This document shows positions 13,244 through 34,497 of a DNA stretch of 64,000 nt, one piece after another (positions within the stretch are counted from its first letter, which is position 1; every line of letters starts with the position of its first letter). The notes beneath the pieces were generated by a model. It did not search any database, was not told the DNA's origin, and saw only the letters and a program-made list of their open reading frames with translations. The stretch comes from Spirochaetaceae bacterium (lineage in GTDB: Bacteria; Spirochaetota; Spirochaetia; WTKD01): positions 124,001 through 188,000 of the forward strand of contig WTKD01000005.1 of assembly GCA_011524535.1 (NCBI GenBank), in the 5' to 3' direction. A program made the position numbers and the translations under genes.

Positions 13244-14002
13244 ATGCAAACCAGAGCGAAATTTTTTTTGATAATATTCTTATTCTTGTCCGCATCCCTG
13301 TATGCATACCCGGCGTATAACGTAGGGTCCGGTATTGCTACCTATCTGATAGCTCCTACTTCAACAGAATTAAGAGAAAAATTTAACAATGTTTCTAACG
13401 ATGACGCAAACGATGCTTACAAATACCTTGCTGCGGCTCCCTTGTCTATACAGTCGATCCGAATATATGGACAATTTGAGTTATTCCTTACAAGAAGAAA
13501 TGCATTATTTCTATCCTACGCGTATTCCGATGAACTCCAATTAAAGGACATTAGCTACGAGGACGACGATGATTTTGCCTTTCTTACAAGTAACACAAAT
13601 TCACATCACATCGATCTTGGATATGTCCATATGATTCCAATTTCGAGATATCTAGAACTCAGAGCTGGCCTATTTGCGGCAACCGCATTTCAATTCCAAA
13701 CCATAGATTTAACTACCAACAATAGTACTCAGGCTAATTGGAAAGATGAGATGTTTCCAGCAATAGGGGGTGGTGTCACTGTAGGAGCTAATCTAGTCCT
13801 CAGCCGTAGGTTTCGATTAGGTGCTCACGTAAACGCTACAGCACTCTGGCGACTGAATTATATGGAAGGTATCATTCCAGATATGGGCAATATCGCTATA
13901 AGTTCTGAGGATATGGACAATCATTTGTCTGAAGTTCACCGGCTATTCGAAACATCTAGCATACGTCTGCTCGTCTCGTATCTTATTGGCCCTCTCGATT
14001 AG
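13244..14002 (+). CDS. Probable outer-membrane beta-barrel protein
   Basis: 252 residues with a signal peptide cleaved near SASLYA-YPAYN (about residue 21). The rest alternates in beta-strand fashion (for example IRIYGQFELFL, ELRAGLFAATAFQF, RFRLGAHVNATALWRL) with acidic turns, as in small outer-membrane barrels. It is not obviously a paralogue of the two preceding genes. No strong Shine-Dalgarno sequence is seen; a weak TTGTTT-N15-TATACA promoter (13206-13232) lies just upstream. It overlaps the convergent C11 peptidase gene by 4 bp. Confidence 0.55.
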   Translation: MQTRAKFFLIIFLFLSASLYAYPAYNVGSGIATYLIAPTSTELREKFNNVSNDDANDAYKYLAAAPLSIQSIRIYGQFELFLTRRNALFLSYAYSDELQLKDISYEDDDDFAFLTSNTNSHHIDLGYVHMIPISRYLELRAGLFAATAFQFQTIDLTTNNSTQANWKDEMFPAIGGGVTVGANLVLSRRFRLGAHVNATALWRLNYMEGIIPDMGNIAISSEDMDNHLSEVHRLFETSSIRLLVSYLIGPLD

Positions 14003-15315
14003 TCGATAAATAGCTCTTTCAGAAAACCATCTCCACTCCAGCGTGTATCGGAGATAAAAGATGACGCAGTAGACCCTGTCTTTTTGTAATAGTTATCATA
14101 TTCCGATATTGCTGCATTCGAGAGTTTTCCAAGATACAATGACATCCCACCTGGATGAGATGGCCCATCAGGTTCTTTTGCAATCACTACCCTTGATATA
14201 GCATTCTCTAAATTTTCAACAAGCAATTGTTCTTCAGAAGATAATTCATTGAATAAAAAAGAAGCTCGTAACACTTGCAAGAAATTATATACATCTACAT
14301 GGGCATCACCCTCACCTGCATCATCTTCAATCCATAATGTCGTTTTTGGAAAAAGATTCGATCTGTTCAATAACAATGACCGCAATTCCTCTTTCAGAAT
14401 TTCATCCCCTAAAAAATCATCAAACCCAGCAAGCAAATTATCCCAATCGGTTGCAAATGAACCAATCCTACTGGGCAACACCGCGGAATATGGGAAAAAA
14501 TCACCGTAGGTGTCATTATAAATTCTAACGATAAAGCGTGCGACCGTTAAAATTTCGCGATCTGACTGAACAATCGATTCAATTACCGTGCTATAATCCC
14601 ATCCAGTGATCCTGACATTTTCCTGTGATGCAATAAATATAGATGGTGTGTTCTTTAACTCATATATCACTTCTATATTTGCACCTATACAGGCATCGAG
14701 AGCAATAATATCAATACTTGAAGAAGAAAAAACCTTTCCTAACTCGGTGATTGTAAGATTGGTTTGTATATCTCCGGCGCTATCATAGGCAATCCCACGA
14801 AAAACGTTGGGAGCATATCCATCAGAGGACAGCGATTTGTACCCATCTCCATGCCCCCACAATACCATCAATTTTTTATGATCGGAATAATTATCTTCTA
14901 TATAGGATGTGAATCCCTTGAGTGTCTCCTCCTGACCCATATCAAGCTCCTCCCTGGCATTTACTGTCAGACCAAGTCTTGGTATTGCAATTTCCGTTCT
15001 TATTCCATTAGAAATTCTGTAGGCTCGTGTATCACTCCAGTCTGATGTATCGCTTGGATCAGAATATGCGGTGGCATACCGATCAACAAGTACTATGGTT
15101 ACCACATCATCCGATTTGACATCTTCAATTTCTCTGATGTCCTCCATAACCACTCTATGTAGATCATGAAAATCAGCGGACATATACAATCCAATAACCC
15201 AAGGGTCGACTGTTTGTCTTCCTTGTACCTGACAAGAGAGAAATACAAGGAGGCTAAAAAAGAGCGAGGTGTATTTCAGGTTCCTCCCCAAAAAATCCAA
15301 TATATCATCGCGCAC
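13999..15315 (-). CDS. Clostripain-family (peptidase C11) lipoprotein 1
   Basis: 438 residues from GTG 15315, chosen because AGAGGTGG lies 5 nt upstream; an ATG at 15336 would add seven residues. The signal sequence ends in the lipobox LVFLSC (Cys28). The C11 catalytic pair is intact: His155 in LWGHGDGY and Cys209 in ALDACIGAN. Clostripain-type enzymes are Arg/Lys-directed cysteine proteases. As a lipoprotein it would act at the cell envelope. It lies downstream of the paralogue at 15346, 30 bp away on the same strand. Confidence 0.85.
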   Translation of the reverse strand: MRDDILDFLGRNLKYTSLFFSLLVFLSCQVQGRQTVDPWVIGLYMSADFHDLHRVVMEDIREIEDVKSDDVVTIVLVDRYATAYSDPSDTSDWSDTRAYRISNGIRTEIAIPRLGLTVNAREELDMGQEETLKGFTSYIEDNYSDHKKLMVLWGHGDGYKSLSSDGYAPNVFRGIAYDSAGDIQTNLTITELGKVFSSSSIDIIALDACIGANIEVIYELKNTPSIFIASQENVRITGWDYSTVIESIVQSDREILTVARFIVRIYNDTYGDFFPYSAVLPSRIGSFATDWDNLLAGFDDFLGDEILKEELRSLLLNRSNLFPKTTLWIEDDAGEGDAHVDVYNFLQVLRASFLFNELSSEEQLLVENLENAISRVVIAKEPDGPSHPGGMSLYLGKLSNAAISEYDNYYKKTGSTASSFISDTRWSGDGFLKELFID

Positions 15316-15345
15316 GAAATCCACCTCTTGCATCATTCAGAATAT

Positions 15346-16740
15346 TCATCGAGCATATAGCAGGTAATAGAGAAGCCCGCTTCTATTTCTGATATCTGGA
15401 ACCCAATCAGAATCAGCAACAAATGCCAATGGGTAGCTAACCGATTCACCCCGAATATAATAATATCCGTGCGGATAGTTAGATATCGAACCGTTTTCAT
15501 TTACGAGTGTGAGCGCAATGGATAAACCACTCGAACGAGAATTTCCTACACTGTGTGCCCATTGTGCGATGATGGCCTCCTCCATTGCCTCTTGGAGCTC
15601 TCCTGCTTCTATTCGCACTCCTGTAGAAAGAAACGAAGCATCGCTGTCCTGAAGCCTACTTCCAAAATGTACCGCTAGATCATGAAGATCGAGACTGAAC
15701 ATCCCAGGCAAAACAACTATGTCCTCTACATTGGTGAATAATTCTACAAGCAATTCTTCTCGAGCCCCTCTATCGTTCATAACTGTTTCCGACAACGCCC
15801 TCGAAAAATCATTCAATTCGTGATAAACCCAGTCCATTTTACTAAGATCTATCGCTCCAATGGTAGAATAAGCATTTTCCTTGTAGCGATCTTCGAATGC
15901 AGAAACAACCGACCTGCCCAAATCCTCTGGGCTACCCGATGTAACCATAAATTTTAGCAACAAATAATCATATTCCCACCCGTCAGCAAGTTCCAAATCA
16001 GGAGAAGCAACAAACACGTCTGCTGAATTCCTTAGTTCATAGGCAACCTCGATATTCCCCCCCAAGCAGGAGTCAAAACCAACAAGAGATATATCATGCT
16101 CATTGAGAGTGGTTGCTATCGATTGTGTGTATAAAGCATCGAAATTATCTGAATAGTCATAAGAAACAAGTTTTGTCAGCTCCTCTTCTTCCTCTTCTTC
16201 TAAATTACGAAAACCACTCCCATGCCCCCAAAAAACGATTCCGACATGATCGCTGTCATATCGATTTGTTCCATCTTTTATAAAAGCCTGTAATGTATCT
16301 GGGTCCCCCATGTTCAGTTCAACATCCTGTCCAAGATCCAACCCTAGTTCTACAGAAGTAAGTTGTTGAGAAACAAAAAAATCAGAATCTATCTCATCAT
16401 GTTGTATTTCATACAACCGAGTACCGGTCCAATCTCCATTTGCTGTACTGTAGCCTGGGGCCCGATCAATAAGAACCAATACCTTGACCCCATGTTGTGA
16501 GAAATCAAAGGCAGCTTCAAGTTCATTGATATCCTCAATCGCATATGGTTCCAGATCGTTGTCTGCACTCATATAGATTAACAAAGTCCACGATTCTTTA
16601 TGAAATTCTGATGATTTAAACAAAGAAGCATCGAACTCAAAATCATCGCTACCTATTTGTCTTATTTCGGGTTCTGTAATTCTAGAGTCGCAGGCAAAGA
16701 TCAACGCACCAAATAATATTATTATGATAAACACTTTCAT
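15346..16740 (-). CDS. Clostripain-family (peptidase C11) lipoprotein 2
   Basis: 464 residues. The signal peptide ends in the lipobox LIFAC (Cys17). C11 motifs: LLIYMSADNDLEPYA (53-67), His173 in FWGHGSGF and Cys225 in GFDSCLGGN. A run of seven glutamates (181-187) directly after the His motif is an insertion in the loop beside the active site. It is paralogous to the gene at 13999, suggesting tandem duplication followed by divergence. Cotranscription from the COG3014 gene upstream (46-bp gap) is possible. Confidence 0.87.
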   Translation of the reverse strand: MKVFIIIILFGALIFACDSRITEPEIRQIGSDDFEFDASLFKSSEFHKESWTLLIYMSADNDLEPYAIEDINELEAAFDFSQHGVKVLVLIDRAPGYSTANGDWTGTRLYEIQHDEIDSDFFVSQQLTSVELGLDLGQDVELNMGDPDTLQAFIKDGTNRYDSDHVGIVFWGHGSGFRNLEEEEEEELTKLVSYDYSDNFDALYTQSIATTLNEHDISLVGFDSCLGGNIEVAYELRNSADVFVASPDLELADGWEYDYLLLKFMVTSGSPEDLGRSVVSAFEDRYKENAYSTIGAIDLSKMDWVYHELNDFSRALSETVMNDRGAREELLVELFTNVEDIVVLPGMFSLDLHDLAVHFGSRLQDSDASFLSTGVRIEAGELQEAMEEAIIAQWAHSVGNSRSSGLSIALTLVNENGSISNYPHGYYYIRGESVSYPLAFVADSDWVPDIRNRSGLLYYLLYAR

Positions 16741-20332: not shown

Positions 20333-21634
20333 TTATCTCCGTACAGCGCCATTATGCGAAATCGGATGATCTATGTTCTGGTGTGCTGTTTTCAATGATT
20401 CGATAAGCGGTAAATGAACGCCAGAAACATATCTTAGCATCGCACCCCCACCTGTGCTTACATAGTTAAAATTCGATAGTTTTGAAAACTTTTTAAGAGC
20501 CGCGACACTGTCTCCACCGCCGATAATTGTATAGGCAGGAGAACAAGCAATAGCGTCCCACAATACTCGAGTTCCCCTAGCTCCCGCCTCTTCCTCATAA
20601 CACCCGACCGGGCCATTTATCACTATAGTATTTGCTTCTGATACTATCTTTGTAAACAATGCGATACTTTCGGTACCAATATCGTAACAAAAATTGTGGA
20701 AATGAAAGTCTGAAATATTAATCGATGTGTATTCTTGACCAATGGCACATATGAGGTCTACGGGCAAAATGATTCTATCTGAAAATTTCTTCAATATTCG
20801 TTTAGCAAGGGGTAGGAAAGAGAATGCTTGAATACGATTCAGAAATCGAAGATAGTCCTCATGAAAATGAATACCCTGCGCATACAACATCACCATAGCC
20901 GGCAGCCCACCACACAGGACTTTATCGACAATATTGTTTTCAAAGGCTGGTTCAATAACAGAAAATGCATCAGAAACCTTTGCCCCCCCCAATAAAAAAT
21001 GACAAGGAGTTCTTTCTAAGGAATGCGTAACATTCAAAGCCTCGATTTCTTTTTGGAACTGTATTCCTATCGCCGATGGCAATAGCTCCTGGAATGCCAA
21101 AATAGATGGGGATCTACGATGAGCTGCGGAAAATGCATCAATTACTACACAATCAAATAATGGAGCCAAATTTCGAATGAGATAGGTTTCGGTCATACGC
21201 TCAACCGATAGATGAACTACTTCATCGAATACCGATATTTCTTCTGAAAGATAGCGAAGATTATCTAAAAGTAACACTTCGCCTGGTTTCAATTTTGCGA
21301 TACATTCTCTCGCATAGGGCCCTGCAATATCATCGATAAATCGAACGGGTTTACCTATGTTTGATTCGATAATCTTTGCATGTTCCGAAAGGCTGCAAAC
21401 ATTCACATAATCAATAGTATCTCCTTGATGAGCAATGATCACAACTGCTGCATCACGTTCGCACAGGTAATGCAAACTTGCCATACTTTCAATGATTCGG
21501 GATTTATCTGCAATTTTCTTTGTTCTCCGATCCAAGGGAACATTGATATCTATACGCAGTAGAACTTTCTTTTTGAAAACATCGATGTTGACAAGTTCTG
21601 TGAACACGGAGTTAGACAAGCTCAAGGTATTCAT
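20333..21634 (-). CDS. pgk: Archaeal-type phosphoglycerate kinase
   Basis: 433 residues from ATG 21634; an upstream in-frame ATG at 21694 lies within the preceding gene. RIDINVPLD, the AHQG motif, DAFSAAHRRSPS, GGAKVSDAF, IINGPVG-like INGPVGCYE and GGGDS...VSTGGGAMLRYVSG are all PGK motifs, and DAFSAAHRRSPS, AHQGD and LAPLFD are closer to archaeal PGK than to the common bacterial form. It catalyses ATP formation from 1,3-bisphosphoglycerate. It follows the type II GAPDH-like gene with a 23-bp overlap. Confidence 0.85.
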   Translation of the reverse strand: MNTLSLSNSVFTELVNIDVFKKKVLLRIDINVPLDRRTKKIADKSRIIESMASLHYLCERDAAVVIIAHQGDTIDYVNVCSLSEHAKIIESNIGKPVRFIDDIAGPYARECIAKLKPGEVLLLDNLRYLSEEISVFDEVVHLSVERMTETYLIRNLAPLFDCVVIDAFSAAHRRSPSILAFQELLPSAIGIQFQKEIEALNVTHSLERTPCHFLLGGAKVSDAFSVIEPAFENNIVDKVLCGGLPAMVMLYAQGIHFHEDYLRFLNRIQAFSFLPLAKRILKKFSDRIILPVDLICAIGQEYTSINISDFHFHNFCYDIGTESIALFTKIVSEANTIVINGPVGCYEEEAGARGTRVLWDAIACSPAYTIIGGGDSVAALKKFSKLSNFNYVSTGGGAMLRYVSGVHLPLIESLKTAHQNIDHPISHNGAVRR

Positions 21635-22625
21635 TTGTGCGAAGAATAGCCGTCGTATTATTCTTCTGCAGAGCACACGATGCGCGTATTGCATCTATGC
21701 ATTCAGGGATGATTATGCCTTCAGGAAGCATGCCGATGCTAAAAAATACATCATTTCCCATACATTGAATGCTGTCTTCCCATACAAATACTTCATGCAG
21801 ATCGTTTCGTAATGCGCTAAGATTATTAGCATAATTAAACAAAGAAGCATCTCCATGAAATCCCTGTTCGGTTTTTCCTACACGTATACGCTTATCGTCT
21901 TTAAGAAGATCCCCAAATTGTTCTTCTGTCATCGGTTTAGTCGTTGACATATGCAAAGATATCAAATGACCGTAGGATGTGGGAATATATATAAGAGTGC
22001 TCATGGCCTGGATATGGGGTATGAATTGCATTGTCTTATTCGCATGCAGGTGGGTAGTCGCATCGATCTCCATCGAATTCATAAGTCCTTGTGTATGGCT
22101 CCCCGGAGAGGCGTTCCGATGCATAACCGTAGCGGTGAGTCGCTCAATACGAACCGCTCTATCAACGACATCAACGACGCGCAACATACCTACAAGACTT
22201 GGTTGAGGTAATTGCAAGAATTGCTTTCCCCGTCCTTTTTCGTAATTAATATAAGAATGAAAATAGCATTGCGATACTAATTCATCTTCCCCACTTTGAA
22301 AAATGGCATGCTTTTTACCTCTTTCATACAACACCCTGTTTTGTTCACCCACACCAGGGGAAGACATGTCCACAATAATATCCGCTTCTCGAACAAGATC
22401 GGCTATCGTTCCAGAGGTCGGTATATCTTTATCTGCAAACATCTCTACATTTTCATGCGAAGAACCAAAGAAAGCATAGGGCATACCCCTCTCTTTTAAA
22501 GAGCGAACCGCCAACGTATACGAATTGTCGGAAACTCCTATCAATTCCATGTCTTTTTGCACAATGATGTCATCCGCCACGCGTTGCCCCATAGTGCCAA
22601 ATCCAACTACTCCAACCTTAACCAT
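21612..22625 (-). CDS. Type II (archaeal-type) GAPDH-like protein lacking the catalytic cysteine
   Basis: 337 residues. N-terminal Rossmann motif GVVGFGTMGQRVAD, the IVDMSSPGVGEQN segment, FQSGEDE and the C-terminal IIIPECIDAIRAS are those of archaeal type II glyceraldehyde-3-phosphate dehydrogenase. The active-site SCNTT is replaced: residues 140-146 read PQPSLVG, so the nucleophilic cysteine aligns with Pro142. Flanking sequence stays in register (RVVDVVDRAVRIERLTATVMHR), so this is not a frameshift. Normal thioester chemistry is impossible; it may bind a sugar phosphate, act on another substrate or regulate. SD AAGGAGG precedes ATG 22625. Confidence 0.75.
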   Translation of the reverse strand: MVKVGVVGFGTMGQRVADDIIVQKDMELIGVSDNSYTLAVRSLKERGMPYAFFGSSHENVEMFADKDIPTSGTIADLVREADIIVDMSSPGVGEQNRVLYERGKKHAIFQSGEDELVSQCYFHSYINYEKGRGKQFLQLPQPSLVGMLRVVDVVDRAVRIERLTATVMHRNASPGSHTQGLMNSMEIDATTHLHANKTMQFIPHIQAMSTLIYIPTSYGHLISLHMSTTKPMTEEQFGDLLKDDKRIRVGKTEQGFHGDASLFNYANNLSALRNDLHEVFVWEDSIQCMGNDVFFSIGMLPEGIIIPECIDAIRASCALQKNNTTAILRTNEYLELV

Positions 22626-22629
22626 ACCC

Positions 22630-23586
22630 TTACACCTCCTTATATGCGTGCATTATTTTTTCGGCCAATGCCTTTCCAGTTAATGAAAATCGTTCTGCTA
22701 GATAACCCATGTCACCTACCTCACCAAATGTTCCCTGTATACCGCATCGAATTACGGTGACAGGGCACGACTCACTGACAAATTCTACAATAGCTCCACC
22801 CAAACCGCCAACCGCTTGATGATTTTCACATGTCACCAATAATGCATGATTCTTAGCGACATGCCGCAATGTGGCCTCATCGATGGGTTTGATACTATAA
22901 AAATCATATACAGACGCTGAAATGCCTTTCTGTAAAAGAATATCTGCCGCTTCCAAGCAGGCGCACAGAGAAAGCATCCCCGCTCCCAAGAAGCACACGT
23001 CTCGACCAGAGCGGAGGCATAGTGAAGAGCCTATTGGTGCTTCTATATCTTCGTTGTATAACGTTCGCTTCTCTCGCCGAGGTAGGCGAATATAGTAGGT
23101 TGCATCTGCAAGAATAGCTTGCTCCAATACATCTGCCAATATGTATCGATCCGTTGGTTCGGTCACTACTGTATCAGGAATAACACGCATCAATGCTACG
23201 TCTTCAAAACACATATGTGTCGCCCCGTTGTATGTTGCGTACACACCAGGATCACTACCAATGATGGTAATCGGGTTTTTTCCCAACCCTGAGGAAACGA
23301 ATGTCTGATCGTAGCACCGACGTGATGCGAAAGAAGCAAAACTATGCACCACGGGAATCAGTCCCATCGCACTCATCCCGGACGCAATACCAATCATATT
23401 CGCCTCTGCAACACCAACATTGACTATGCGTTCGGGAAACATAGCCTCAATAGCTTCAAATCCATGTGCATACATAAGATCTGCCTGAATCAAAACGATT
23501 TTCTCGTGTTTTTTCATCAAAGCAATCATGACTTCTGCATAAGCCTGTCGCATTTCTATATCTTGTTCGAGTGGTTTAACTGTCAT
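22630..23586 (-). CDS. Transketolase, C-terminal (pyrimidine-binding/C) subunit
   Basis: 318 residues from ATG 23586, which overlaps the stop of the N-terminal subunit by 11 nt (coupled translation); two earlier in-frame starts lie further inside that gene. The sequence VGVAEANMIGIASGMSAMGLIPVVHSFASF carries the catalytic Glu of the TPP pyrimidine site and YCHQ-like phosphate-binding residues follow. The split N/C arrangement is common in archaea and several bacteria. The pair moves two-carbon units between sugar phosphates. Confidence 0.88.
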   Translation of the reverse strand: MTVKPLEQDIEMRQAYAEVMIALMKKHEKIVLIQADLMYAHGFEAIEAMFPERIVNVGVAEANMIGIASGMSAMGLIPVVHSFASFASRRCYDQTFVSSGLGKNPITIIGSDPGVYATYNGATHMCFEDVALMRVIPDTVVTEPTDRYILADVLEQAILADATYYIRLPRREKRTLYNEDIEAPIGSSLCLRSGRDVCFLGAGMLSLCACLEAADILLQKGISASVYDFYSIKPIDEATLRHVAKNHALLVTCENHQAVGGLGGAIVEFVSESCPVTVIRCGIQGTFGEVGDMGYLAERFSLTGKALAEKIMHAYKEV

Positions 23587-24454
23587 AGTGAATATGGGTA
23601 GCACATAGGGTTATATCTTTTTTTGAAACGTTCAAATGATGTGAAACTCGACGCCCTTCCAAGTCTGGATGCCCCTTCCCCTTGATCGTATCGCAAATAA
23701 TCATCTGCGGTCTTTTCGCAGTTGCGCCAAGCTCTCTGAGTTCTTCTATCGTATTATATAAGGCTTGAAAATCATGTCCGTCAATTCTTCGCGTTATCCA
23801 TCCAAAACTATTCCATTTTGCTTCAAGGTCTTCCAAGTCCATAACGTTTTTGGTTGGACCATCTATTTGAAACTTATTGCAGTCTACAAATCCCATGAGA
23901 TTACCGAGTCCAAAATGGGCACAAGACATCGCGGCTTCCCATGTCTGACCTTCGTCGCATTCCCCATCGCTCAATAATGCATACACATGCAAATTTGACT
24001 TTTTTATCCGGGCAGCGTAAGCCATTCCTATCGCCATAGACAATCCTTGCCCCAACGATCCTGTGGTACAATCAACCCCTGGAGTTAAGAGATGATCAAC
24101 ATGGCTTGGTAAACGAGTTCCCCCTCGGTTCATCGTCCAAAGAAGGGAAGAATCAAAAAAGCCCCTGCGAGCGAGAATACTATATAGACATGGTCCTGCA
24201 TGGCCTTTCGAAAGCACAAATCGATCTCTTTCTGGATCTTCTGGATGCTCTGCATCTACGCATAGATATAGCTCGTATAAGATAACGAGTATCTCCACCA
24301 CAGACAAAGATCCTCCCATATGCCCAAGTCCAGCTTCGGCAATCATGGTGACTATATCTATCCTGGTTTTCTTTGCCAAAGAAACTAGTCGCTTTTCAAG
24401 CTCTTCAGAATATTCTGTTTTCTTGTTTGACAGAGTTTTTGACGAGTTGTACAT
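23576..24454 (-). CDS. Transketolase, N-terminal (TPP-binding) subunit
   Basis: 292 residues. LGHMGGSLSVVEILVILY, DRFVLSKGHAGPCLYSIL, GSLGQGLSMAIGMAYAARI and the TPP motif SDGECDEGQTWEAAM...N are all present. It corresponds to the first half of ordinary transketolase and pairs with the gene at 22630. It starts 19 bp after the tRNA-Leu gene, whose transcript probably also carries it. Confidence 0.9.
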   Translation of the reverse strand: MYNSSKTLSNKKTEYSEELEKRLVSLAKKTRIDIVTMIAEAGLGHMGGSLSVVEILVILYELYLCVDAEHPEDPERDRFVLSKGHAGPCLYSILARRGFFDSSLLWTMNRGGTRLPSHVDHLLTPGVDCTTGSLGQGLSMAIGMAYAARIKKSNLHVYALLSDGECDEGQTWEAAMSCAHFGLGNLMGFVDCNKFQIDGPTKNVMDLEDLEAKWNSFGWITRRIDGHDFQALYNTIEELRELGATAKRPQMIICDTIKGKGHPDLEGRRVSHHLNVSKKDITLCATHIHYDS

Positions 24455-24560: not shown

Positions 24561-25250
24561 TCAGCCAATCACCGTTCCTATTGCTACAGTGTTCGTGACA
24601 CCACCTACAATATCTCTAATGATATCAGGATTCTGACCATTTGCAATATATACACGTAATAAATTCTCACTCGCTAGTTTCGATGCAATCGGATCGAATG
24701 GGGCATGAAGTCCGGGTTTCCAAGAAAGATCTTGAAATAACCGAAAATATTGATCCCAACTCAGCTCATCGATCGGCGCAGCATCAGAATATGTCCTTGG
24801 GTCCTTGTCATATATGTGTGAAACATTTGAAAAGTTGTATACCGCTCCCGCATTACTCTTCTGTGCTAAATATACACTCACCGTATCTGTAGAGAATCCT
24901 GGTTTCCACCCCCCCATAACAACAAATTGAGAATCATGTATTGCAAAAGCCTCATCTGGCGAACATGGTACTGGCATAGGTGCATCAAGAAGAGCTGCTA
25001 GGATACTTGCATTCACCCGTGTTGCAGCTATGCCTAAAAGGTCAAGTGTATCATGATCAACCTCGGGGGAGACTACTCGAAGACTTTGTTGATATTCTCT
25101 GGCAATCGATCCGCCGCCAACAACGATGTATATCCGGACATCCCTATCTCGCACATCATGCAGCAAACGTCGAAATTGATCTATATAAGATTCCGAGATG
25201 CCGTCTGGGCAAATCAGTGATCCACCAAGAGAAAACACAAAAGTACGCAT
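24561..25250 (-). CDS. pyrH: Archaeal-type UMP kinase
   Basis: 229 residues of the amino-acid-kinase fold. FSLGGSL (residues 6-12), VVGGGSIAREYQ and KDPRTYSDA fit uridylate kinase; the length and the DTLDLLGIAATRVNASILAALL segment are nearer the archaeal UMP kinase subgroup than E. coli PyrH. It phosphorylates UMP to UDP. It stands between the ADP-ribosylglycohydrolase-like gene (16-bp gap) and tRNA-Leu. Confidence 0.85.
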   Translation of the reverse strand: MRTFVFSLGGSLICPDGISESYIDQFRRLLHDVRDRDVRIYIVVGGGSIAREYQQSLRVVSPEVDHDTLDLLGIAATRVNASILAALLDAPMPVPCSPDEAFAIHDSQFVVMGGWKPGFSTDTVSVYLAQKSNAGAVYNFSNVSHIYDKDPRTYSDAAPIDELSWDQYFRLFQDLSWKPGLHAPFDPIASKLASENLLRVYIANGQNPDIIRDIVGGVTNTVAIGTVIG

Positions 25251-31586: not shown

Positions 31587-33329
31587 TCAAGCAAAAGCAT
31601 TATTTTTCACTCCAAAAATATTCTTTGGATCTATTGTTTTTTTTGCATTTCGCAACATTTCGATCGAAGGTTCTGAATGAACTTGATCAATGAATGACGC
31701 TCTAAGTTTCCCCACCCCATGATGGTGTGATAGACTTCCACCATTATCAAGAATAACTTGCCGCAAATGTCGTTCAACATCTGAAAATACCTCTATACTC
31801 GACCCCTGAAATCCTTCCGTGGAAAATGCATGAGTAAAATAGATACAGACCCCACTGGGGTATATTTGTGTAATTCGTGGCGAAATATAGGGCCTCCCAG
31901 GCAATCCAAATTCTTTGTGTTTTTTAATCGCCTCTTCTCGAACGCTTTCACAAACAACACTTATCTTATTCCAAGGAACTGTCGTTTCGTATGTTTCAGA
32001 AATAATATGAAATTGTGCAAGAAAATCGCGTATATATGCTATCAGATAGGTCAGTAAATAACCGCCTCGCCCGTTCGATGCTCCCGCATGTATCCCTCCG
32101 TGGCGCTTCACTAATTTGTTCACCCGCTGCTTTTGTTCTTCTACCTCTGATGCAGCTCCTTCATACACTATTGTTGCTACCGCAATGGACTTCAAATCCA
32201 TATGTCGTATCTTTTCAAGTACAAAACGCTGTAATTTGCTCTTTATTGCTCCCATGCGAGACGAAGCGGGTTTAAGAGCCTGAGCAAACCTAAACTGCCA
32301 ATTATCAACCAAACGAATGCTTGCGGGAGGGGTGCCCGAAGCCTGTAAATCGCGCATAAACGCCGTACCTCTATGAAAATCTGAAAACACCACGGATTCG
32401 TATTCGCTATTTTCTGGTAATCTTCGAATGCGTATAACGACCTTAGTTATAAGTCCAAAATTCCCCTCAGACCCAAATAACAATTGTTGTACATCGCTGC
32501 CTGTAGACTGTCTTGCGGAACTTGCGCGCGTCGTTATCTCTCCTTTTGGAGTGATACAATGTATACGCTCGACTAGTTCTTCAATATTCCCATATCTGTT
32601 TTTCTTCATACCGCTCGCGTTGGTAGATACCCAGCCCCCAAGTGTTGAAAGCTCGATGCTATCGGGTTCATGTCCAAACATATACCCATGTTCCTGAAGC
32701 GCCTTTTCCAATTCAATACCAGACATTCCTGCTTGAACACAGGCCAGGTTGTTTTCAAAATCAATCCACTCTATCGAATTCATGCGCCGAACATCGAGGG
32801 AAACAACCATTCGTGATTCATCTGTTGGAACTTGCAATGCACAGCTGACATTAGTACCTCCGCCATACGGGATAAGGCAGACATCGTGCTCATGTGCAAG
32901 TTCAATCAGCTTTTTTCCGCTGTCTTCATTTTCACAGAAGAAAACCATATCAACCACACGATCTAGCTTGTCGTACATCACCTTCATATAATCATCAACA
33001 GGCGTCTGACCATGACTGCGAATGGTTCTCTCTTCATTATCAAACGTGTATAGAGATTCATCAAAAAAGCTCTTGATAGCCTTCAAAAAAGTTTCATTGA
33101 TATTCGGTTCAACGATGGGTTTTTCGACTTCTTGAAGAGTATCTGAAATATTTACCGATATGTCCAAACCTTCATTCACAAAATCCATAAAACGTGGCAA
33201 TTCTAATCCAGAAATTGGATAGCGATCCCCTTTAACCACTGCAATCCCTTTTTCATTCAAGAAAAATTCAGTGTCATCAAATCCCCATTTATGAGGATAT
33301 CGTTTTCCAATTTTTAGTTCACTACTCAT
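31587..33329 (-). CDS. Alkyldihydroxyacetonephosphate synthase-like FAD enzyme
   Basis: 580 residues from ATG 33329 (GGGAG upstream; overlaps the preceding stop as ATGAGTAG); an ATG at 33353 is less likely. FAD_binding_4 motif PYGGGTNVSCAL, GHEPDSIELSTLGGWVST and SGMKKNRYGNIEEL, and the C-terminal SLSHHHGVGKLR are those of AGPS, which replaces the acyl chain of acyl-DHAP by a fatty alcohol to make ether lipids. AGPS-type enzymes are best known in eukaryotes and scattered bacteria; anaerobic bacteria often make plasmalogens another way. Its neighbour HMG-CoA reductase also serves lipid synthesis. Confidence 0.85.
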   Translation of the reverse strand: MSSELKIGKRYPHKWGFDDTEFFLNEKGIAVVKGDRYPISGLELPRFMDFVNEGLDISVNISDTLQEVEKPIVEPNINETFLKAIKSFFDESLYTFDNEERTIRSHGQTPVDDYMKVMYDKLDRVVDMVFFCENEDSGKKLIELAHEHDVCLIPYGGGTNVSCALQVPTDESRMVVSLDVRRMNSIEWIDFENNLACVQAGMSGIELEKALQEHGYMFGHEPDSIELSTLGGWVSTNASGMKKNRYGNIEELVERIHCITPKGEITTRASSARQSTGSDVQQLLFGSEGNFGLITKVVIRIRRLPENSEYESVVFSDFHRGTAFMRDLQASGTPPASIRLVDNWQFRFAQALKPASSRMGAIKSKLQRFVLEKIRHMDLKSIAVATIVYEGAASEVEEQKQRVNKLVKRHGGIHAGASNGRGGYLLTYLIAYIRDFLAQFHIISETYETTVPWNKISVVCESVREEAIKKHKEFGLPGRPYISPRITQIYPSGVCIYFTHAFSTEGFQGSSIEVFSDVERHLRQVILDNGGSLSHHHGVGKLRASFIDQVHSEPSIEMLRNAKKTIDPKNIFGVKNNAFA

Positions 33330-34497
33330 CCTTTTTTCTCCCATATATTTCATGCGCTTGCGAAAAAGTTCCAGAACTTATCGCAGATAACAATGATAGC
33401 TCCAAACACAATGCTGAAGCTGCAATGATTTCTGCAAACTTTTTTGATGCATGTTCCCCTTCACTACACCCAAGAAGTTCTAGATTTTTTCTTTGCATTG
33501 GCAGTCGAGTTCCTCCACCAACGGTCCCTACGGTTAAAGAGGGGGTGGTAACATATACTTCCAATTCGGAATCTGAAAGGATCAATTGCGTATGACCCAA
33601 TGCATTTTCTGCCACACATGCAATATCTTGCCCCGTAGCCAAATATATAGCAGCAAGTGAGTTAGAGATATGCAAATGATTTCCTAGTGAACCGGCAAGA
33701 TGAGCCAATGGCAATGAAACCATATGAAGCAAATAGGCGGTTTTTTCACTTACTTGTAGTACTCGTTTTAATACATTTCGTGAAATCTTGGCATGGGCAA
33801 CAACAGAATGTCCCCGGCCCTTCAAGAGATTTCTCGAAGAAGGTTTTTTATCACTATTGAATCCTGATTCGAGAAGATACGTCACTGGAAAATGATTTAC
33901 CATGTATTTACACGCTGCTTCGGTTGCAATAGTAACCATATTCTGACCAGCAGCATTGCCCGTTTCATAAATCATGTCTAATACGGCCCATCTATGCACC
34001 AAATAAGGATCTATACGAATAAGTTTACCGTATCGAGTAGTCGATTCGGCGACTTCTTTCAGTTTTTGGGTGTTTTTTGATACCCACTGTATAAACTCTT
34101 GAGCTTCTTTTGCACTGCTAAACACGAAGGCTGGGCTCCGACTCAATTCCTGTCGAACATATTGTGTTTGAATCCCTCCGCACATTGAAGTTGCAAGCAT
34201 TCCACGACACATGGACATCACAAGGGCTCCCTCCAAAGTACATAAAGGCACTGCAAATCGCCCACGAGCATAGGTTCCTTCTATGTGCAAAGGACTAGCC
34301 ACCGCCATGGGGACAGGAATGAATCCAGCATGATATTCAATTATACCCTGGAGTTGTTCTGGTTCTGGATATATCGTTTCCGAATAGTCTATCCCTAGAC
34401 GTTCTTCGAGCCATTTTTGTCTTCGTTTTGTATCTGTAGCTTCATACCCGGCAAAGGGCTTCTTGAGTGGACGATGATCGATATGTTCGGAACTCAT
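33322..34497 (-). CDS. HMG-CoA reductase, class I-like
   Basis: 391 residues. Catalytic residues expected for the class I enzyme can be placed: Glu89 (PLCTLEGAL), Lys217-Lys218 (DKKPSSRN, followed by GRGHSVV), Asp291 (ATGQDIA) and His382 (QAHEIYGR). The cofactor motif is TGNAAGQNMVT (179-189) where animal enzymes have DAMGMNM; the AAGQNM form also occurs in bacterial class I-like members. It makes mevalonate from HMG-CoA, the committed step for isoprenoids by the mevalonate route. The other enzymes of that route are not in the window. SD GGGG lies 8 nt before the ATG. Confidence 0.85.
   Translation of the reverse strand: MSSEHIDHRPLKKPFAGYEATDTKRRQKWLEERLGIDYSETIYPEPEQLQGIIEYHAGFIPVPMAVASPLHIEGTYARGRFAVPLCTLEGALVMSMCRGMLATSMCGGIQTQYVRQELSRSPAFVFSSAKEAQEFIQWVSKNTQKLKEVAESTTRYGKLIRIDPYLVHRWAVLDMIYETGNAAGQNMVTIATEAACKYMVNHFPVTYLLESGFNSDKKPSSRNLLKGRGHSVVAHAKISRNVLKRVLQVSEKTAYLLHMVSLPLAHLAGSLGNHLHISNSLAAIYLATGQDIACVAENALGHTQLILSDSELEVYVTTPSLTVGTVGGGTRLPMQRKNLELLGCSEGEHASKKFAEIIAASALCLELSLLSAISSGTFSQAHEIYGRKKDE

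What the first reader, a model, noticed from the sequence alone, without database searches (positions are those of the whole stretch)
21612..22625. Type II GAPDH-like protein with proline in place of the catalytic cysteine
The frame, the Rossmann N-terminus and the C-terminal signatures are kept, while the SCNTT motif reads PQPSL (residues 140-144). It is still coupled to an archaeal-type PGK and a transketolase. A dehydrogenase without its nucleophile cannot form the acyl-enzyme, so it may have a new substrate, a non-acylating reduction, or a regulatory role.
Basis: partly seen in the sequence, partly recalled or inferred. Interest (0 to 1): 0.65.

Follow-up and report, generated by a model that had tools for sequence, protein, structure and literature searches.

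The report
Cysteine-less GAPDH-like protein in spirochaete operon
A small-genome spirochaete carries a folded, NAD-binding relative of the sugar enzyme GAPDH that has lost the cysteine needed for its chemistry while its operon partners look intact, and its closest relatives appear to belong not to glycolysis but to an apparently undescribed route for breaking down inositol.

Summary
Window 21612-22625 (-) encodes a 337-residue type II GAPDH-like protein in which the catalytic Cys (Cys140 of 1cf2) is Pro142 and TSCNTT reads PQPSLV. All 104 homologues examined keep the Cys. It is not a local frameshift or sequencing slip: 76 of 174 conserved positions are changed, concentrated in the catalytic domain, while the NAD fold, the catalytic His (H220) and a confident AF2 fold remain. 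The genome has a normal gap-pgk-tpi operon and a normal transketolase elsewhere, so glycolysis is unaffected.

The glycolytic framing is wrong. In other bacteria the same families (type II 'GAPDH', PGK lacking a phosphate-binding Arg, split transketolase) sit beside iolG/E/D/B, malate racemase and malic enzyme. I infer a transketolase branch of inositol breakdown: 5-dehydro-2-deoxygluconate -> D-malate semialdehyde -> malyl phosphate -> D-malate. The window genome lacks detectable inositol and malate genes but keeps transketolase N/C, the Cys-less protein and PGK as one operon.

Best reading: a selected, non-acylating, NAD-binding derivative, either a re-tooled oxidoreductase or a pseudoenzyme partner. 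Its reaction is unknown. No close relative is held, so present-day selection could not be measured.

The parts
21612..22625 (-). Cys-less type II GAPDH-like protein, 337 aa
   Evidence: NF003251 280 bits (cut-off 185); TIGR01546 217 bits (below its cut-off 232.9); phmmer to 2czc/1cf2/1b7g/2yyy; AF2 pLDDT 86, pTM 0.89
22191..22208 (-). codons 140-145, PQPSLV in place of TSCNTT; Pro142 (22200-22202) replaces the catalytic Cys
21966..21968 (-). codon for H220, equivalent to catalytic base His219 of 1cf2, retained
   Evidence: alignment; invariant column in A1
22116..22121 (-). codons 169-170, HR in place of the RR pair (R167-R168 of 1cf2): first Arg lost, second kept
20333..21634 (-). archaeal-type PGK-like kinase; longest ORF starts at 21694, likely start ATG at 21634, overlapping the GAPDH-like gene by 23 bases; carries HQGDTIDY in place of HQG(R/K)P
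   Evidence: homologues align from about this start
22630..23604 (-). transketolase C-terminal subunit
   Evidence: PF02779, PF02780
23576..24454 (-). transketolase N-terminal subunit (overlaps the C-subunit gene)
   Evidence: PF00456

Best explanation
The protein descends from the dehydrogenase of a transketolase-type inositol module. In this lineage the inositol and malate genes are not found, but the transketolase N/C, dehydrogenase-like and PGK-like genes stay together as one tight operon. The dehydrogenase-like protein keeps its fold, NAD site and catalytic His but has lost the Cys, the surrounding motif and parts of the substrate loop. It therefore cannot make an acyl-enzyme or acyl phosphate. 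I think it most likely acts as a non-acylating NAD-dependent oxidoreductase (His-assisted hydride transfer on an alcohol or carbonyl compound) in a re-purposed pathway with transketolase and the PGK-like kinase. Shown by sequence: the Cys loss, the retained NAD motif and His, the intact catalytic motifs of the partners, and the ancestry. Inferred: that it is expressed, that selection keeps it, and that it catalyses hydride transfer. Its substrate is not known.
For: Cys to Pro with gapless alignment; 104/104 homologues keep Cys, so the loss is derived. Changes concentrate in the catalytic domain: 54/95 conserved positions changed against 22/79 in the NAD-binding parts (Fisher p=1e-4). 76/174 changed in this protein against 49/248 in its three operon partners (p=2e-7; partner counts come from a smaller set of relatives). 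Branch to relatives is 3.0 times the relative-to-relative distance, against 1.3-1.7 for the partners. NAD motif GxGxxGxR, D33, H220 and R170 kept. Confident GAPDH fold, TM 0.87-0.90 to solved type II structures. An ORF drifting neutrally by 20% or 30% in amino acids stays stop-free in only 4% or 1% of simulations, indels not counted. Partners keep catalytic motifs. Separate normal gap, pgk and tkt genes exist.
Against: No substrate or activity evidence. A GAPDH without its Cys is not known to me to gain another oxidoreductase activity. The kinase partner would have no obvious source of acyl phosphate. The substrate loop 173-183 is modelled with low confidence, though the loop is also weak in the intact relative. 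No close relative is held, so selection today is untested.
Confidence: 0.42

Rival explanations
1. Pseudoenzyme partner: the protein has no catalytic role but is kept as a structural, NAD-sensing or stabilising partner of the transketolase or PGK-like kinase, or its reading frame is kept for translational coupling to the overlapping PGK gene.
For: Fold and NAD site kept while catalytic residues are lost. The gene order is tight, and the PGK start overlaps the end of this gene by about 23 bases.
Against: The catalytic His and R170 are still present; coupling alone would not preserve Rossmann residues. No evidence of a complex.
Confidence: 0.28
2. Remnant under relaxed selection: after loss of the inositol genes in a 1.42-Mb genome, the dehydrogenase is drifting and will be lost.
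For: Small genome, no inositol or malate-racemase genes detected, longest branch of the four operon genes, conserved positions widely changed.
Against: Uninterrupted ORF in frame after very large divergence; neutral simulation makes this unlikely over a long time. Partners show no sign of decay. NAD-domain positions are preferentially kept. Recent relaxation is not excluded.
Confidence: 0.24
3. The acylating activity survives with another nucleophile, for example Cys120 or Ser143 next to the site.
For: Cys120 is unique to this protein among conserved columns (V in relatives) and Ser143 sits beside the lost Cys.
Against: The aligned Cys position is Pro with no gap; the surrounding N-T-T and the first substrate-loop Arg are lost too.
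Confidence: 0.06

Closest known systems
Type II (archaeal-type) phosphorylating GAPDH, solved as 1cf2, 2czc, 1b7g, 2yyy
   Same: Fold, length, Rossmann motif, catalytic His position, NF003251 model match
   Different: No catalytic Cys, no SCNTT, first Arg of the RR pair and His/Arg of the substrate loop lost; below the TIGR01546 cut-off; organism has a separate normal type I GAPDH
Type II 'GAPDH' of bacterial inositol operons (e.g. Clostridium magnum L138, Clostridiaceae L196, Spirochaetia L142-like loci)
   Same: Nearest homologues (about 40-45% identity), same neighbours PGK-like and split transketolase
   Different: They keep LTSCNTTG and HTPVTHGH, and lie with iolG/E/D/B, malate racemase and malic enzyme, none of which was found in the window genome
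Sulfo-transketolase pathway of sulfoquinovose (PMC11659671)
   Same: Split transketolase acting on a modified ketose in anaerobes, the closest known logic for the inferred inositol route
   Different: Different substrate; I know of no type II GAPDH or PGK step in it
Classical iolC/iolJ inositol pathway
   Same: Shares iolG, iolE, iolD, iolB
   Different: In the operons read in full here no iolC or iolJ was seen; the transketolase/dehydrogenase/kinase genes are in that place

Membership tests
Type II phosphorylating GAPDH | Catalytic Cys in SCNTT | tested here: not met
   Pro142, PQPSLV
Type II phosphorylating GAPDH | Catalytic base His (His219 of 1cf2) | tested here: met
   H220 aligned, invariant in A1
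Type II phosphorylating GAPDH | Rossmann NAD(P)-binding motif GxGxxGxR | tested here: met
   GFGTMGQR; G8, G10, G13, R15 invariant
Type II phosphorylating GAPDH | Substrate-loop residues (RR..D, HR, SHQ) | tested here: not met
   HR..S, TQ, THLH
Type II phosphorylating GAPDH | Fold | tested here: met
   AF2 pLDDT 86; TM 0.87-0.90 to 2czc, 1b7g, 1cf2, 2yyy
Type II phosphorylating GAPDH | Curated model scores | tested here: inconclusive
   NF003251 passed, TIGR01546 not passed
Type II phosphorylating GAPDH | Glyceraldehyde 3-phosphate oxidation activity | not testable with these tools
   needs purified protein
Transketolase-type inositol module (inferred here) | Split transketolase and PGK with HQGD in place of HQG(R/K) | tested here: met
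Transketolase-type inositol module (inferred here) | iolG/E/D/B in the genome | tested here: not met
   tblastn of relatives' proteins against the reassembled genome: no iolB or iolE, only weak distant hits for iolD and iolG; genome is 96% complete
Transketolase-type inositol module (inferred here) | Malate racemase (LarA family) or malic enzyme or D-malate dehydrogenase | tested here: not met
   No Lar_N match, no malic enzyme; the D-malate-dehydrogenase-like hits are leuB and icd
Pseudoenzyme | Conserved fold with loss of an essential catalytic residue | tested here: met
Pseudoenzyme | Absence of catalytic activity | not testable with these tools
   needs assay

The most novel reading that the evidence does not exclude
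Type II 'GAPDH' and its PGK partner in many anaerobic bacteria are a D-malate-semialdehyde dehydrogenase and a malyl-phosphate kinase in an undescribed transketolase branch of inositol breakdown, and in the window lineage this operon has been re-purposed again, its dehydrogenase turned into a non-acylating NAD enzyme working with transketolase and kinase in a further, unknown pathway.
Probability: 0.27. Interest if true: 0.78.

Novelty: new variant of a known kind. Interest (0 to 1): 0.52.

Why it matters
An otherwise invariant nucleophile lost in a protein that still folds and stays in its operon is a clean case for asking how a dehydrogenase fold changes chemistry or becomes a pseudoenzyme. 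Following it up shows that genes annotated as glycolytic GAPDH and PGK in many anaerobes probably belong to inositol breakdown, which would correct annotations and predicts a testable four-step route giving ATP and D-malate.

Tried and rejected
Compensated frameshift at the motif: an alternative frame reads Thr-Ser there, but a frameshift-aware alignment to the family profile chose no frameshift even at low cost. Glycolytic role: rejected because a normal gap-pgk-tpi operon and a full-length tkt exist. D-malate dehydrogenase in the genome: hits proved to be leuB and icd. PyrH and ADP-ribosylglycohydrolase upstream as pathway members: PyrH is the only copy detected and so probably housekeeping. 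A single-sequence scan of named genomes found nothing; the alignment-based scan found 80 named loci. Literature searches for a transketolase, malate-semialdehyde or malate-racemase inositol route found none in the open-access library held; subscription papers are not covered.

Full report
Observation. The gene at 21612-22625 on the minus strand encodes 337 residues without interruption. It matches the NCBI model for type II GAPDH (NF003251, 280 bits, cut-off 185) but falls below the stricter TIGR01546 phosphorylating GAPDH cut-off (217 against 232.9). Gapless alignment to the solved archaeal enzymes places Pro142 at the catalytic Cys140 of 1cf2; the six residues TSCNTT of relatives read PQPSLV. 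The catalytic base His219 of 1cf2 corresponds to H220 and is retained; of the RR pair the first Arg is His169 and the second, R170, is retained.

How unusual it is. Among 104 homologues from the class, the phylum and 80 named bacterial and archaeal loci, all keep the Cys. Of 174 positions conserved in at least 90% of them, the window protein differs at 76; 54 of 95 in residues 139-302 but 22 of 79 outside (Fisher p about 1e-4). Its three operon partners differ at 49 of 248 such positions, counted on a smaller set of relatives. In trees, the window-to-relative distance divided by the relative-to-relative distance is 3.0 for this protein and 1.3 to 1.7 for the partners. No compensated frameshift explains the motif.

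Is it a real protein. AF2 with the family alignment gives pLDDT 86.3 and pTM 0.89, and Foldseek finds the four archaeal structures first at TM 0.87-0.90. The model of an intact relative is alike; both start the active-site helix at the Cys/Pro position and both are weak at the loop near residues 173-180, more so in the window protein. A neutral substitution-only simulation leaves an unbroken frame in 3.8% of runs at 20% amino-acid change and 1% at 30%. This argues for past selection on the product; it does not exclude recent relaxation.

Genome context. The genome (1.42 Mb, 14 contigs, 96% complete) is the only held member of its order; relatives in the same class bear names such as Spirochaetia and Treponema. 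A normal type I gap with SNASCTTN, pgk and tpi lie together on C7 and a full-length transketolase on C2. The operon in the window is therefore a side operon: transketolase N, transketolase C, the Cys-less protein and PGK, with overlapping or nearly touching genes. Transketolase and PGK keep their catalytic motifs.

What the relatives do. In 80 named loci the type II 'GAPDH' lies with PGK in 77, iolE 37, LarA-family racemase 36, iolD 36, transketolase N 32 and C 31, iolG 31, iolB 30 and malic enzyme 27. In one operon, L196, NCBI models name iolD, iolE, iolG and 'nickel-dependent malate racemase, LarAH6 family' above cut-off; the iolB match is below cut-off. L143 has a tartrate-dehydrogenase-family protein in place of racemase and malic enzyme. 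In the operons read in full no iolC or iolJ was seen. All 98 PGKs in the tree lack Arg or Lys after HQG, 78 of them with Asp, whereas 2cun reads HQGKP. From pathway chemistry (my own reasoning): 5-dehydro-2-deoxygluconate has the D-threo ketose end that transketolase accepts; removing two carbons leaves D-malate semialdehyde, which a phosphorylating dehydrogenase and a kinase would turn into D-malate and ATP, and malate racemase plus malic enzyme would take to pyruvate. This is inference; no assay exists, and I found no paper describing it in the open-access library. Malate racemases of the LarA family are established (PMC7583248, PMC11770544).

Interpretation of the window protein. The ancestor very likely belonged to this module. 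The inositol genes, malate racemase and malic enzyme are not detectable in the window genome, so the remaining four genes must serve something else or be on the way out. Because the NAD site and catalytic His survive and the partners look intact, I favour a non-acylating NAD-dependent oxidoreductase, then a pseudoenzyme partner, then a remnant under relaxed selection. The evidence does not separate these firmly.

Limits. No close relative, so no dN/dS; no coordinates, so Cys120 could not be measured; 4% of the genome may be missing; partner statistics rest on few sequences for transketolase.

Noticed in passing
L138 6695-16977, L196 773-12052, L142 1421-12546, L143 7998-16917: Type II 'GAPDH', PGK with HQGD and split transketolase recur in inositol operons with malate racemase, malic enzyme or a tartrate/D-malate dehydrogenase family protein; suggests a transketolase branch of inositol catabolism giving D-malate.
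   Followed up: partly
L155 3-3943 region (same contig as L039): A Spirochaetales locus has transketolase N/C, GAPDH-like, PGK and a tartrate-dehydrogenase-family gene with a GntR regulator but no inositol genes nearby; the module may serve other ketose acids.
   Followed up: no
L195, L212, L152, L171: Some loci couple the same GAPDH-like/PGK pair to a HpcH-type aldolase, an Asp/Glu racemase-like protein and, in two, a fucose-isomerase-like protein, instead of inositol genes.
   Followed up: no
window 13999-16740: Two adjacent clostripain-family (Peptidase_C11) genes.
   Followed up: no
window 31587-34497: HMG-CoA reductase next to an FAD-linked oxidase (FAD_binding_4, FAD-oxidase_C).
   Followed up: no
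window 24561-25250: UMP kinase of the archaeal type (TIGR02076 above cut-off), the only copy detected in the genome.
   Followed up: partly
window 22630-24454, TKN residue 162: The thiamine-diphosphate motif of the transketolase N subunit reads SDGE instead of the GDGE of relatives.
   Followed up: no
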